64,000 nucleotides of DNA from Granulicella sp. (GTDB taxonomy: Bacteria > Acidobacteriota > Terriglobia > Terriglobales > Acidobacteriaceae): assembly GCA_025357875.1 (NCBI GenBank), contig JANYLK010000218.1, forward strand, positions 88,127-152,126, written 5' to 3'. The notes under the pieces are model-generated. The model worked only from the letters and a program-made list of their open reading frames with translations, searched no databases and had not been told where the DNA came from. Both the position numbers and the translations under genes were made by a program. Below, one piece after another: positions 54,091 through 59,111 of the stretch (within the stretch, counting starts at the first letter, position 1; the number at the start of each line of letters is the position of its first letter).

Positions 54091-55275
54091 ATGACCCCAA
54101 GACGCAAGATCGGCATCACCTGCTACCCGACCTATGGCGGCAGCGGAGTTGTCGCCACCGAGCTTGGCATTGAACTTGCCGCCCGCGGCCACGAGGTGCA
54201 CTTCATCACCTCCTCGCCGCCGTTTCGGCTCAATGGACGCGAAGCCAACATTCGCTTCCACGAGGTGGACGTTTACCACTACCCGTTGTTTGAGCATCCG
54301 CCCTACGATCTCGCTCTGGCCACTCGCATGGCCGAGGTCGCCGAGTTCTATTCGCTCGACCTGTTACACGTTCATTACGCCATCCCTCATTCCATCTCTG
54401 CTCTGCTCGCGCGCCAGATGCTGGAAACGCAGCAGCAAGCGATGCGACGCCGTTATCTTCCGTTCATCACCACGCTGCATGGCACGGATATCACGCTGGT
54501 TGGGCTTGACCGATCCTACCTGCCAATCACACAGTTTGGAATCGAGCAATCCGATGGAGTCACTGCGATCTCATCCTATCTCCGGGACCGCACACGCGAG
54601 GCGTTCAGCATCCAAGGCGAAATTGAAGTGATTCGCAACTTCGTGAATTGCGACGTATACGTGAAGGTACCTACCAAGGTTGTGGCGATGCGGCCGCGAT
54701 ATGCCAGCGCAGACGAAAAACTTCTGGTTCATCTCTCTAACTTCCGGCCGGTCAAGCGCATTCTGGATGTGGTCGAAGTTTTCGCGCGCGTCTCTGAGGC
54801 GCTGCCTGCACGTTTGATGATGATCGGCGATGGGCCCGACCGCTCCGCAGCCGAGCACCTCGCGGTGCGCTTGGGCGTGGCCGAACGTATTCACTTCCTT
54901 GGCAAGCAGGACAACGTCAACGAGTTGCTTCCGCTCGCCGATTTGATGATCATGCCCTCTGAGATGGAGTCGTTTGGATTGGCCGCGCTCGAAGCCATGG
55001 CCTGCTCCGTGCCTACCGTCGCCACCCGCGTTGGCGGCGTCCCCGAACTTATCGACGATGGCGTCAATGGCCTGCTCTTCCCTATAGGCGACGTGGAAGC
55101 TATGGCCAACGCCGCCATCGACCTGCTCGGCGACGAACCGCGACTCGCCATCATGTCGACTACCGCGCGAAAGACTGCAAGCGACCGTTTTTGCTCGTCC
55201 CGCATCATCCCGCTTTACGAGGAGTATTACGAACGGGTTCTCGCCCGGAGCCGTGATCTCCCGCCCACCGCTTAG
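54091..55275 (+). CDS. bshA: BshA-like N-acetyl-alpha-D-glucosaminyl L-malate synthase (GT4)
   Basis: RKIGITCYPTYGGSGVVATELGIELAARGHEVHFITSSPPFRL; HVHYAIPHSISALLARQ; LHGTDITLVGLDRSYLPITQFGIEQSDGVTAISSYLRD; EMESFGLAALEAMACSVPTVATRVGGVPELI. Confidence 0.9.
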   Translation: MTPRRKIGITCYPTYGGSGVVATELGIELAARGHEVHFITSSPPFRLNGREANIRFHEVDVYHYPLFEHPPYDLALATRMAEVAEFYSLDLLHVHYAIPHSISALLARQMLETQQQAMRRRYLPFITTLHGTDITLVGLDRSYLPITQFGIEQSDGVTAISSYLRDRTREAFSIQGEIEVIRNFVNCDVYVKVPTKVVAMRPRYASADEKLLVHLSNFRPVKRILDVVEVFARVSEALPARLMMIGDGPDRSAAEHLAVRLGVAERIHFLGKQDNVNELLPLADLMIMPSEMESFGLAALEAMACSVPTVATRVGGVPELIDDGVNGLLFPIGDVEAMANAAIDLLGDEPRLAIMSTTARKTASDRFCSSRIIPLYEEYYERVLARSRDLPPTA

Positions 55276-57900
55276 AAGAATTGGAAGTTGACCTCGAGAT
55301 TCAACTCTACTGGCACGGGTTTTCCATCCTCCATCGCAGGTTTGAACTTGTATTGCTTGACGGACAGCTTTTTCATCTAGCCCCATGCCTAAGCCGCGCA
55401 GCACATGTACGTTCTGCGGCATCCCCTGAGTGTCGACAATCAGGCTCAGGAGTACGATTCCGGTAAGTCTGGCTTTTTTCGACTCCTGCGTCATTTCAGG
55501 CTCAACCTGATAGATCATGATGGGTGTTGAAACGCTACCTCCAATTTTCCTCAGGCCGGTAATTGCGTCCGTCGCCGCGCTCTGTTCCGGTTGCTCTGTC
55601 GTATCGCCAAACGTGTAGTTGATATTGATTGTCGTCTCGACTGCGGTCGGCTCGCCGTTCAGCAAGTAGGGCTTGTACTTCCACTGCCTCACCGCCTCCA
55701 TCGCACTTGTCGCTAGCTCCGGGGGACCGCTTACAACCTGCAGCGCCTGGATCGTCCCCGTATTTGAGATGACCGCATGTAGTACGACGACACCTTGCAC
55801 ACCCGCAGCTTTAGCCTCTTGCGGATATACAGGATCAACCTTGGAAGCCAGCATCCCGGATGCCACTCCGCCCGAGACGCGTATTGGACTCCTTGGCGGA
55901 ATCGCGACCATGGGTGCTGAATCTTCCGCCTCCGGAAGGTGCTGTGCGACACCCCTACTGTCACCATTGCCAAACGTGTAATTCACTGTGATCGTCGTTT
56001 CTACTTCGACCGGCTCGCCATTCAGCAGGTACGGCTTGTACGTCCAATGATTCACTGCATCGATTGCACTCGCCCGCAGCATCTCCGGTCCGCTGATTAC
56101 GTTAAGACTTTCAATTGTTCCTGTCTTCGATATGACCGCGCGCATAACAACAGCACCCTGCACATGCACCGCCTTTGCGTCATTGGGATAGACCTGAATT
56201 GGCCTACTAATGACATTCCCCGCCATCGCACCAGCAGGAACCTTCACCGCCCGCGTTATACCCGTCGACGCGACGGTAACTCCTGCAGTGTTTTCTGGTT
56301 GGCGAATTTGAGACACCAACTGAAATTTCCCGCACTTACAGTCATCGACAAATCTCACGTCGATGCTCTGCCCTCTCCCATCAGCAGAGCGATAGTGCCA
56401 AACTTCAATAGGTACGTTCCCCGCACCGTTCCCGCTCCGTTCACCGGGCGGGTGCGCGTCAATCGATTCCGGTCTTCCATGCACGATGTAAGTTCGCCCG
56501 CGATCTGTAGTCCATCCCGGCCGATCAGCCGCGAAGTGTTGATTGGCGTAGGCAATACGCGCGTAATACTGTTCCTTGAAACCAGCCGCCGGCGGCTCAT
56601 AGGTCAAACTGTGACGCTGCCAGAATTTGCTGATGAACAGGTTCCGGTCGTCGTCATTTGTCAGGCGGAGAAAGTGAGCACGCTCTTCCGGAGTGATGAT
56701 GTAAGTCACATCCTCGTTCAACCAGTTTTTGTACACAGGTTGCAAGGCCCGTGGCTGTGCAGAATCCTGCGTGGTCTGCCGTTGAGCGAGGCTTGTCGCC
56801 TGCGGTGGCGTAGAGTCAGATCGACTCGGCGCGATGATACCTAAGGGCGCGGCTTCTACATTCTTGGCTTCTGCTCGCGAAATAGTGATTCCATATAATC
56901 CACCGACCGCAATGATTAAAGCCACAAGCGTGAGTGCTGCGAACCGCGACGCTGCCACATCTTCCCTAAATCCGAGTAACCTTTTCAATCGCATCTTCAG
57001 CACTCCTCCATTCGCGCCCAGTACAAATTCTGGGAACGCTGCGCGGCGCTCTTCCAGATACGACAACGCCTTTGCATACGCAAGCACGTTGCCGCCCATC
57101 GCAACTGCGATCTCGTCGCAGCAGCATTCTCGCTCGCGGCGCACATGTTTTGATACCCACCACACCGCCGGGTGATAGAACAACAATGCCTCAGCGACGG
57201 ATTGGAAGACGCTCACGAGATAGTCGTGGCGACGCACATGCGCCAGTTCGTGACAGAAGATCGCCTCAGTCTGCAACGTGGATAGACCAGTGAGACAGCT
57301 CGCAGGGATTAGAACGACCGGACGCAACCAACCGATGACCGTCGGCACCTGAACCCTCCCGGAGTGGAGCATTTTGACGGTGCGCACAACCCTCATGCGG
57401 CGTTTCAGATCGTCAAAGAGACCTTGCAACTCGTGCGGTGGCGCCTGGGTTCCTGTGACCTTCAGCCTTCGAGCAACCGTCAAACCACAATTGAGGAGCG
57501 CTACAAAGAAGATCGCGCCCGCGAACCACGCCACCAGCAGCCAAGGCAACGACCGATCCAGAGCCGCTGCAATCCGGATAGGCCAAGGCGCTGCGAGTTC
57601 GCCAATGCCGACCTGCAGCATCATCTCAACGTCGATCGCTATCGCCGATTGCTGTAACTCGTTTTGCGTTTTGTAGTCCTCGAAGGCAAGGCGTGCAAAC
57701 GTAAACAACGGCATTGCAACCATCAGCGCCAGCGCAAAGCAGGCTGCTCCGTACCGTGCCTGGGATGACCGGCCCCCAAGAGATCCCAGAACAAGCCACA
57801 AGACCAGAGCAGCAAGTGTTCCCTGCCAGAGGAAATGAATCAAGGTCCAGCCCAGAGCGTGAACGAGCGAATGTCCGGAGAATTCCATCAATGTAGCCAT
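55272..57900 (-). pseudogene. BlaR1/MecR1-type M56 peptidase fused to a GWxTD-like region and three TonB_C domains; frame disrupted near 55361-55372
   Basis: FCHELAHVRRHDYLVSVFQSVAEALLFYHPAVWWVSKHVRRERECCCDEIAV (M56); GWTTDRGRTYIVHGRPESIDAHPPGE..PIEVWHYRS (GWxTD); three VQGxVVxxAVIS..G.I / LTGIVLLSLIV TonB_C units. Alternative frame ...KKLSVKQYKFKPAMEDGKPVPVELNLEVNFQFF* ends at 55272. Confidence 0.8.
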
Positions 57901-57902
57901 AG

Positions 57903-58307
57903 CTACCTCTTTTCGAACCGGTCCAACATCTGACGAATTTCTGCTAATTCCGACGCCGACACTTTCTCCGACGAGAGCGCGACCAGCACCAGGTCTTTTG
58001 CCGAGCCATCGAACGCACGCTGCATAAGATTTCTGGTCAGTCTTTGCTGTGTCTGCTGCTGCGCAATCCGCGCCTCGTACACATGCGACCGGAATTTCTC
58101 GCTACGCTCCAGCAAGCCCTTCTCCACCATCACCTGCATCTGCTTCAGCACCGTGGTGTAGCCCGTGTCCTTGCTGCTTTGAGTGTGGACGTCGCGCACC
58201 GTGCTAGGTCCTGCCGCCCACAAAATGTTGAGAATCTCCAACTCAGCATCGGTGGGCAGTTGTACTGAACTAGTTGTCTTGCCTCGTCGCTTCATATTCA
58301 TCACCAT
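57903..58307 (-). CDS. BlaI/MecI/CopY-family transcriptional regulator
   Basis: LPTDAELEILNILWAAGPSTVRDVHTQSSKDTGYTTVLKQMQVMVEKGLLERSEKFRSHVYEA. ORF-track start at 58331 is TTG inside the operator; ATG at 58307, 58301 or 58295 is more likely. Confidence 0.93.
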   Translation of the reverse strand: MVMNMKRRGKTTSSVQLPTDAELEILNILWAAGPSTVRDVHTQSSKDTGYTTVLKQMQVMVEKGLLERSEKFRSHVYEARIAQQQTQQRLTRNLMQRAFDGSAKDLVLVALSSEKVSASELAEIRQMLDRFEKR

Positions 58308-58309
58308 CG

Positions 58310-58325
58310 TACGACACATCTCGTA
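58310..58325. promoter_or_regulatory. Putative BlaI operator TACGACACATCTCGTA (TACGA-N6-TCGTA)
   Basis: Perfect 5-bp arms; immediately upstream of the likely blaI start. Confidence 0.65.
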
Positions 58326-58358
58326 TGTCAATGATTATTCTCGTATATTAAGGTCGCT

Positions 58359-59048
58359 CTACCGTGGACTTGGTGCTGGCCACTGTTCCAATACTCGCTG
58401 GGCGACCTGGTAAATCAAACCGCCCTCAACGAGTGCGTTCTGCGGCGCGGTTTGAATATAGCGAACGATACCGTGAGGGTGGGTGACGATCAGCAGGGGA
58501 AAGTCTGTGGCGACGAAGATGTCGAGCGTGTCGTTGGGGACGATGAGCGTGGATGTGCCGACAAGCTGATCCGCGACGTTGATCTTGGTTCCGGCCTGTA
58601 TTTCGATGTGAGGTATTGCACCTTTTGTGGATGCGCCAGAGGATTGCCTAGCCAACTTCGAGAAGGCGTTTACGGTCCTCGCAGGTTGGTTCACGATTAG
58701 CTTCGGTGCCGGCGGCCTAGGGTTCGCCTGCGCCAACAGTGCATAAAACCTAACGCGTTCCTGCTTCAGGCTGGCAGCCGTAGACACGAAGAGCGTGTCC
58801 ATTGCCACACACTGAGCGCACCAGTCGGGAAAGAGCAAAAATGCACTGGCTCCGGCCGATTTGCGCTTCAAATCAGGTGAGACAGGCTTGCGCACAATAT
58901 CTAGCGGACGGTACGCCCGATCGTAAGCAGCCTGCGGCGATAGTTGCAGAGTCGCGGATTTGGGGAGCGCAGACTGCAGCTGTGACGGATTTTGGGCAGG
59001 AGCGGCGCGGAGGCAGAACAGCAATACAAGGATGGGAAGCCATCGCAT
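58359..59048 (-). CDS. Secreted thioredoxin-fold-like protein
   Basis: Signal peptide MRWLPILVLLFCLRAAPAQ; SAFLLFPDWCAQCVAMDTLF (CxxC). Confidence 0.65.
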   Translation of the reverse strand: MRWLPILVLLFCLRAAPAQNPSQLQSALPKSATLQLSPQAAYDRAYRPLDIVRKPVSPDLKRKSAGASAFLLFPDWCAQCVAMDTLFVSTAASLKQERVRFYALLAQANPRPPAPKLIVNQPARTVNAFSKLARQSSGASTKGAIPHIEIQAGTKINVADQLVGTSTLIVPNDTLDIFVATDFPLLIVTHPHGIVRYIQTAPQNALVEGGLIYQVAQRVLEQWPAPSPR

Positions 59049-59095: not shown

Positions 59096-59111
59096 TACGA
59101 TACTCGTCGTA
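59096..59111. promoter_or_regulatory. Putative BlaI operator TACGATACTCGTCGTA (TACGA-N6-TCGTA)
   Basis: Same arms and spacing as 58310-58325; about 48 bp upstream of the thioredoxin-like gene start. Confidence 0.65.

What the first reader, a model, noticed from the sequence alone, without database searches (positions are those of the whole stretch)
55272..57900. M56 protease - GWxTD - triple TonB_C fusion
The single reading frame appears to contain, in order: a BlaR1/MecR1-type membrane protease (HELAH, residues ~1-345), a GWxTD-like segment (residues ~390-525, GWTTDRGRTYIVHGRPESIDAHPPGE...EVWHYR) and three tandem TonB C-terminal-like repeats (about 555-645, 675-765, 785-end). BlaR1 normally ends in a penicillin-binding sensor. 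Replacing it with repeated TonB_C modules suggests a different ligand or partner, perhaps outer-membrane or energised-transport status.
Basis: partly seen in the sequence, partly recalled or inferred. Interest (0 to 1): 0.7.

Follow-up and report, generated by a model that had tools for sequence, protein, structure and literature searches.

The report
BlaR1-like protease with borrowed TonB tail
A soil bacterium carries a membrane protease built like the penicillin sensor BlaR1, but its outside part is assembled from copies of the cell's own TonB transport domains and of a little-known acidobacterial domain, so it probably switches genes in response to the state of the outer membrane rather than to an antibiotic.

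Summary
The domains are real: Peptidase_M56, GWxTD and three TonB_C all pass curated cut-offs. One correction: it is not a single clean frame. The third TonB_C breaks near 55362. Its last strand and stop (55272) lie in another frame, and the mechanical ORF runs on antisense through bshA. Relatives have this domain intact.

The gene follows blaI, as does nearly every M56 gene found. The blaI promoter carries a conserved dyad, TACGAN6TCGTA, filling the -35/-10 spacer. In this genome that dyad occurs only there, before an adjacent periplasmic thioredoxin-like gene, and once (probably by chance) inside metH. This fits a self-repressed BlaI/BlaR1-type switch.

M56-GWxTD is common in Acidobacteriota (37 of 90 M56 domains compared); TonB_C joins it in a minority. 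GWxTD with three TonB_C was seen only here. The TonB_C copies belong to the two classes of genuine TonB in the same genome: T1 and T2 to the proline-rich class, T3 to the other. Relatives keep this A-then-B order. The GWxTD looks captured from the housekeeping GWxTD protein, CxCG motif included.

New variant of a known kind. Sensing of TonB or outer-membrane status is inferred, not shown.

The parts
55272..57900 (-). M56-GWxTD-TonB_C receptor gene; in frame to about 55362, then a change of frame to the natural stop at 55272-55274
56866..57900 (-). BlaR1-type membrane metalloprotease domain (residues 1-345), with hydrophobic segments at 20-38, 51-69, 118-136 and 320-338 and a re-entrant-like 188-206
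57238..57252 (-). HELAH (217-221), equivalent to BlaR1 H201EXXH; D226 follows at the BlaR1 Asp210 spacing
57115..57129 (-). E258CCCD262, equivalent to BlaR1 E242XXXD, with the same 41-residue spacing from HEXXH
56326..56724 (-). GWxTD domain (393-525); confidently modelled, helical with a beta hairpin, no solved relative
56332..56340 (-). C521-x-C523 (CKCG), the only two cysteines of the extracytoplasmic part upstream of the frame change
55975..56190 (-). TonB_C copy T1 (571-642), class A (proline-rich TonB)
55612..55839 (-). TonB_C copy T2 (688-763), class A; 57% identical to T1
55272..55509 (-). TonB_C copy T3 (class B), interrupted by the frame change near 55362
57903..58295 (-). BlaI-family repressor (mechanical ORF 57903-58331; likely start ATG at 58295, as in relatives)
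58310..58325 (-). operator TACGAGATGTGTCGTA, filling the spacer after TTGACA in the blaI promoter
58330..58345 (-). imperfect second operator copy TACGAGAATAATCATT; relatives have a better one at the same place
58359..59048 (-). periplasmic thioredoxin-like protein (signal peptide, CAQC), probable regulon member
   Evidence: (Thioredoxin E=0.033, weak)
59096..59111 (-). second exact operator TACGACGAGTATCGTA, followed by -10-like TAAAAT, upstream of the thioredoxin-like gene

Best explanation
This is a BlaI/BlaR1-type regulated-proteolysis switch whose periplasmic sensor is a mimic of the cell's own TonB proteins plus a captured GWxTD domain. BlaI represses its own operon and the neighbouring thioredoxin-like gene through TACGAN6TCGTA (inferred from sequence). 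The periplasmic tail binds the partners that TonB and the GWxTD protein normally bind, most likely the TonB boxes of outer-membrane transporters that TonB is not serving, or misassembled envelope proteins. Partner binding alters the membrane protease, which then cuts BlaI and derepresses the controlled genes. Shown here: the domains, the catalytic motifs, adjacency to blaI, the conserved operator and promoter geometry, and the kinship of the TonB_C copies to the cell's own two TonB classes. Inferred: protease activity, BlaI cleavage, the partner and the signal.
For: M56 domain with HEXXH, EXXXD and the further catalytic Asp, all at BlaR1 spacing; sequence and fold match to BlaR1 structures. 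A BlaI gene directly upstream in the window and at all M56 loci of the survey but one short fragment, L091. Exact operator dyad in the promoter spacer at 31 of 50 blaI upstream regions, 27 of those 31 with a TTGACA-like -35 directly before it. TTGACATACGAN6TCGTA occurs once in each of 7 genomes that carry this system and 0 times in 34 other relatives. In the own genome the dyad occurs only at blaI, at the thioredoxin-like gene and once inside metH. The TonB_C tree has two deep classes on starred branches; T1/T2 fall with proline-rich TonB and T3 with the other class, and M56 tails with two or more resolved copies run A then B. Models of the tail match the TonB C-terminal domain bound to the receptor FoxA. 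Relatives' tails add POTRA, CarboxypepD_reg or HlyD-like modules.
Against: No partner, ligand or cleavage has been measured. The regulon seen is very small (own operon plus one gene), and no TonB-dependent receptor gene was found with the operator in this genome. TonB_C modules can be general protein-binding modules. The third copy is broken in this assembly. The thioredoxin-like target is not conserved in position, and its -35 element is weak. The tree of TonB_C domains rests on 76 columns.
Confidence: 0.45

Rival explanations
1. The same BlaI/BlaR1-type switch, but the tail senses periplasmic thiol or disulfide state (or a metal) through the CxCG pair in GWxTD. The output is a periplasmic thioredoxin-like protein, and the TonB_C copies are only anchors.
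For: C521 and C523 are the only extracytoplasmic cysteines before the frame change; CxCG is kept in the fused GWxTD domains of the window's M56 clade and in the standalone ones of its order. The second operator lies before a CAQC thioredoxin-like gene. The convergent neighbour is bshA of bacillithiol synthesis.
Against: CxCG is equally present in the standalone GWxTD proteins, so it need not belong to sensing. The closest M56 relatives lack GWxTD altogether. bshA is only a neighbour, with no operator. The thioredoxin-like gene is not next to blaI elsewhere.
Confidence: 0.2
2. A general cell-envelope stress switch. The protease is triggered by membrane or peptidoglycan disturbance, and the tail modules evolve freely without a specific ligand.
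For: Tails differ greatly between close relatives with the same M56, blaI and operator. The syntenic relative L005 lacks GWxTD.
Against: The modules are not random: TonB_C of two classes in fixed order, GWxTD, POTRA, CarboxypepD_reg. No penicillin-binding domain is present and no beta-lactamase gene was seen beside it.
Confidence: 0.25
3. A decaying gene in this genome: the frame change removes the third TonB_C and adds about 260 meaningless residues, so the receptor no longer works.
For: Loss of the natural end near 55362 and an ORF that runs on antisense through bshA.
Against: The other 850 residues show no decay, the catalytic motifs and both operators are intact, and the residues after the break still encode a good class B end in the other frame, as expected for a very recent or assembly-made change.
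Confidence: 0.1

Closest known systems
BlaR1/MecR1 with BlaI/MecI (Staphylococcus aureus; PMC9834060)
   Same: N-terminal four-helix M56 metalloprotease with HEXXH and EXXXD, extracytoplasmic C-terminal tail, adjacent BlaI-family repressor, dyad operator in the promoter
   Different: No penicillin-binding sensor; tail of GWxTD and three TonB_C; no beta-lactamase output seen; operator TACGAN6TCGTA
M56-GWxTD proteins of Acidobacteriota (unnamed; found here)
   Same: Same M56 family, same blaI neighbour, GWxTD at the same place
   Different: Most have no TonB_C; only a few have one or two; the window has three and the CxCG form of GWxTD
M56-TonB_C proteins of Acidobacteriaceae (L006, L008, L036; syntenic relative L005)
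   Same: Closest M56 domains (61-68% identity), same operator, class A and class B TonB_C in the same order
   Different: No GWxTD; CarboxypepD_reg, coiled or POTRA parts instead in some
TonB C-terminal domain (TonB-FoxA, 6i97; TonB-BtuB, 2gsk)
   Same: Same fold and profile; the cell's own TonB proteins are close sequence relatives
   Different: No ExbB-type single transmembrane helix and no proline-rich linker; carried by a protease
Standalone GWxTD protein (TIGR04514, about 600 aa; own genome C126:44127-44483)
   Same: Same domain, including CxCG
   Different: Secreted-type protein without M56 or TonB_C; GWxTD is found in nearly every genome of the class (144 of 151)

Membership tests
BlaR1/M56 receptor (Peptidase_M56, PF05569) | M56 profile above the curated cut-off | tested here: met
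   96.9 bits, cut-off 31
BlaR1/M56 receptor (Peptidase_M56, PF05569) | HEXXH and EXXXD gluzincin motifs at BlaR1 spacing | tested here: met
   217-221 and 258-262; catalytic residues invariant among relatives
BlaR1/M56 receptor (Peptidase_M56, PF05569) | Four membrane helices with the tail outside | tested here: inconclusive
   Hydropathy and model agree with four helices and a re-entrant part; topology not measured
BlaR1 beta-lactam sensor (NF000326 and related equivalogs) | Penicillin-binding sensor domain; equivalog cut-off 400 bits | tested here: not met
   87 bits, protease part only; no transpeptidase domain
BlaI/BlaR1 regulatory pair | Adjacent BlaI-family repressor | tested here: met
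   Penicillinase_R 90.5 bits, cut-off 22.6; adjacent at nearly all M56 relatives
BlaI/BlaR1 regulatory pair | Operator dyad in the controlled promoter | tested here: met
   TACGAN6TCGTA between TTGACA and the -10; binding itself not tested
BlaI/BlaR1 regulatory pair | Cleavage of BlaI by the protease | not testable with these tools
   needs the bench
GWxTD domain (TIGR04514/PF20094) | Profile above cut-off and GWxTD motif | tested here: met
   100.3 bits, cut-off 28; GWTTD
TonB_C (PF03544) | Profile above cut-off in three stretches | tested here: met
   149.3 bits, three stretches; the third is cut by the frame change
TonB energy transducer | Single N-terminal helix for ExbB and proline-rich linker | tested here: not met
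   No such segment; the own genuine TonB (L181) has both

The most novel reading that the evidence does not exclude
A BlaR1-type receptor that uses copies of the cell's own two TonB C-terminal domains as bait to gauge outer-membrane transporters left unserved by TonB, and reports this by cutting a repressor. It would be a direct sensor of TonB-dependent transport.
Probability: 0.25. Interest if true: 0.8.

Novelty: new variant of a known kind. Interest (0 to 1): 0.5.

Why it matters
If true, BlaR1-type receptors would be a general chassis for reading envelope state, with the sensor part swapped in from the very machines being watched (TonB, and in relatives POTRA or CarboxypepD_reg modules). 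It gives a first testable role for the uncharacterised GWxTD domain, which nearly every genome of the class carries and for which the paper library searched holds no study, and a concrete operator with which to find the regulons.

Tried and rejected
Programmed frameshift near GAAAAAG: not pursued, because the relatives compared have two extra residues there and an intact single frame. Third genomic operator match (C151): inside metH, taken as chance. Thioredoxin-like gene as a conserved partner: homologs in only 5 of 40 relatives and none beside blaI. Remote fold of GWxTD: no PDB match with E below 0.001 and no sequence relative in PDB. Single origin of M56-GWxTD: the GWxTD tree prefers more than one origin, but the AU test does not reject one (p=0.155); the M56 tree does reject all GWxTD-bearing M56 as one clade (p=0.0006) and those of the window's larger clade as one clade (p=0.002), so GWxTD was gained or lost more than once. 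Papers on GWxTD, DUF3738 or M56-TonB fusions: none relevant found.

Full report
Observation. The window lies in a draft genome of 4.56 Mb in 229 contigs; named relatives are Acidobacteriaceae such as Granulicella and Edaphobacter. The minus-strand gene 55272-57900 encodes, in order, an M56 protease, a GWxTD domain and three TonB_C stretches, all above curated cut-offs. The frame that holds everything to residue about 846 does not stop at 55272 but runs on to 54571, opposite bshA. The natural end of the third TonB_C, with stop at 55272-55274, lies in another frame. The break is near 55362, where relatives have two more residues. It may be an assembly error or a real mutation.

Protease. HELAH 217-221, D226 and E258-D262 sit at the same spacings as H201EXXH, Asp210 and E242XXXD of S. 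aureus BlaR1. Sequence search and fold search both find BlaR1 among solved structures. Hydrophobic segments fit four helices plus a re-entrant part. There is no penicillin-binding domain, and the BlaR1 equivalog score is far below its cut-off. It therefore probably works like BlaR1 but is not a BlaR1 beta-lactam sensor.

Genetic setting. A BlaI-family gene lies directly upstream, as it does at all but one (L091, a short fragment) of the M56 loci examined. Upstream of blaI is a dyad TACGAN6TCGTA. In 31 of 50 blaI upstream regions the dyad is exact; in 27 of these 31 a TTGACA-like -35 abuts it, and the -10 follows after one base, giving a 17-base spacer. TTGACATACGAN6TCGTA occurs once in each of seven genomes that carry this system and nowhere in 34 other relatives; the reversed control gave none. 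In the own genome the bare dyad has three places: the blaI promoter, a place 48 bases upstream of a thioredoxin-like gene next door (58359-59048), and one inside metH that is probably chance. With the downstream CTA included, the pattern is found in 6 of 41 genomes, all with the system. Two extra sites lead to a secreted TIGR03435/DUF3738 protein in G016 and to a second blaI in G017. The inference is a self-repressed switch with a very small regulon.

Tail: TonB_C. The own genome holds a canonical proline-rich TonB (L181) and two TonB-family proteins of another class (L182, L183). A tree of TonB_C domains splits into two deep classes on starred branches. T1 and T2 lie with the proline-rich TonB, T3 with the other class. 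In the related M56 proteins with two or more resolved TonB_C domains, class A comes first and class B last. The models of these domains match TonB C-terminal domains, including ones solved in complex with outer-membrane receptors. The protein lacks the ExbB-type helix of TonB, so it cannot be an ordinary energy transducer. Only 76 columns support this tree: the two-class split is well supported, finer branching is not.

Tail: GWxTD. GWxTD occurs in 144 of 151 genomes of the class, mostly in a separate secreted-type protein of about 600 aa. Its model is confident (pLDDT 90), but no solved structure resembles it. The fused domains of the window's M56 clade and the standalone domains of the window's order carry CxCG; the other fused and standalone forms seen lack it. 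One fused protein filed as Acidobacteriaceae (L025) lacks it but groups with the Bryobacterales type. The window's domain falls in a clade of fused CxCG domains (100/96) that joins the standalone domains of its own family (99/94). This suggests capture from the housekeeping gene, separately from the fusion in Bryobacterales, although one origin is not rejected (p=0.155). On the M56 tree the window pairs with L005, which lacks GWxTD, and the GWxTD-bearing proteins are not one clade (p=0.0006). The tail modules have therefore been swapped repeatedly.

How common. Among 90 M56 domains compared, 37 carry GWxTD, 8 carry both GWxTD and TonB_C (one pair identical), and only the window has GWxTD with three TonB_C. 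The survey kept the best 80 loci of a larger set plus near relatives, so counts are of a sample. Relatives add POTRA, CarboxypepD_reg or lipoyl/HlyD-like parts.

Mechanism. Best reading: the tail acts as bait for partners of TonB and of the GWxTD protein; engagement shifts the protease so that it cuts BlaI. Shown: anatomy, motifs, operator and kinship. Inferred: cleavage, partner and signal. Rivals are a thiol or metal sensor through CxCG (supported by the thioredoxin-like target), a general envelope-stress switch, and decay of this copy.

Literature. No paper in the library searched describes GWxTD, DUF3738 or an M56-TonB fusion. From my own knowledge, M56 proteins with TonB_C also occur in Bacteroidota; this was not tested here.

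Noticed in passing
window 58359-59048 and 59096-59111: Thioredoxin-like periplasmic protein (CAQC) with its own exact BlaI-type operator, lying between a LytS-type histidine kinase gene and blaI; the syntenic relative L005 has no such gene there.
   Followed up: partly
L005:5977-9389: Syntenic relative: M56, coiled repeats, CarboxypepD_reg, two TonB_C, POTRA, TonB_C; a short stretch of N and a frame change lie inside.
   Followed up: partly
L010, L013, L027: M56-GWxTD proteins that end in POTRA (L010, L013) or carry a lipoyl/HlyD-like part (L027).
   Followed up: partly
L173:1501-2633: Exact operator and promoter upstream of a secreted TIGR03435/DUF3738 protein, a possible further regulon member in G016.
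   Followed up: partly
L180:1091-1519: Second blaI with the operator in G017 and no M56 gene seen after it; the contig may be misjoined.
   Followed up: no
L169:4976-9314: The standalone GWxTD gene of this genome is divergent from a MacA-type adaptor gene followed by an ABC transporter gene.
   Followed up: no
window 54571-55361: About 260 codons stay open antisense to bshA after the frame change.
   Followed up: partly
L017, L040: Acidobacterial-type M56 genes on contigs filed as Rhodanobacteraceae and Nevskia soli; contamination or transfer.
   Followed up: no
L170, L171 (G000 C42 and C127): The genome has two further blaI-M56 pairs with short tails and without an exact TACGAN6TCGTA operator.
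   Followed up: partly
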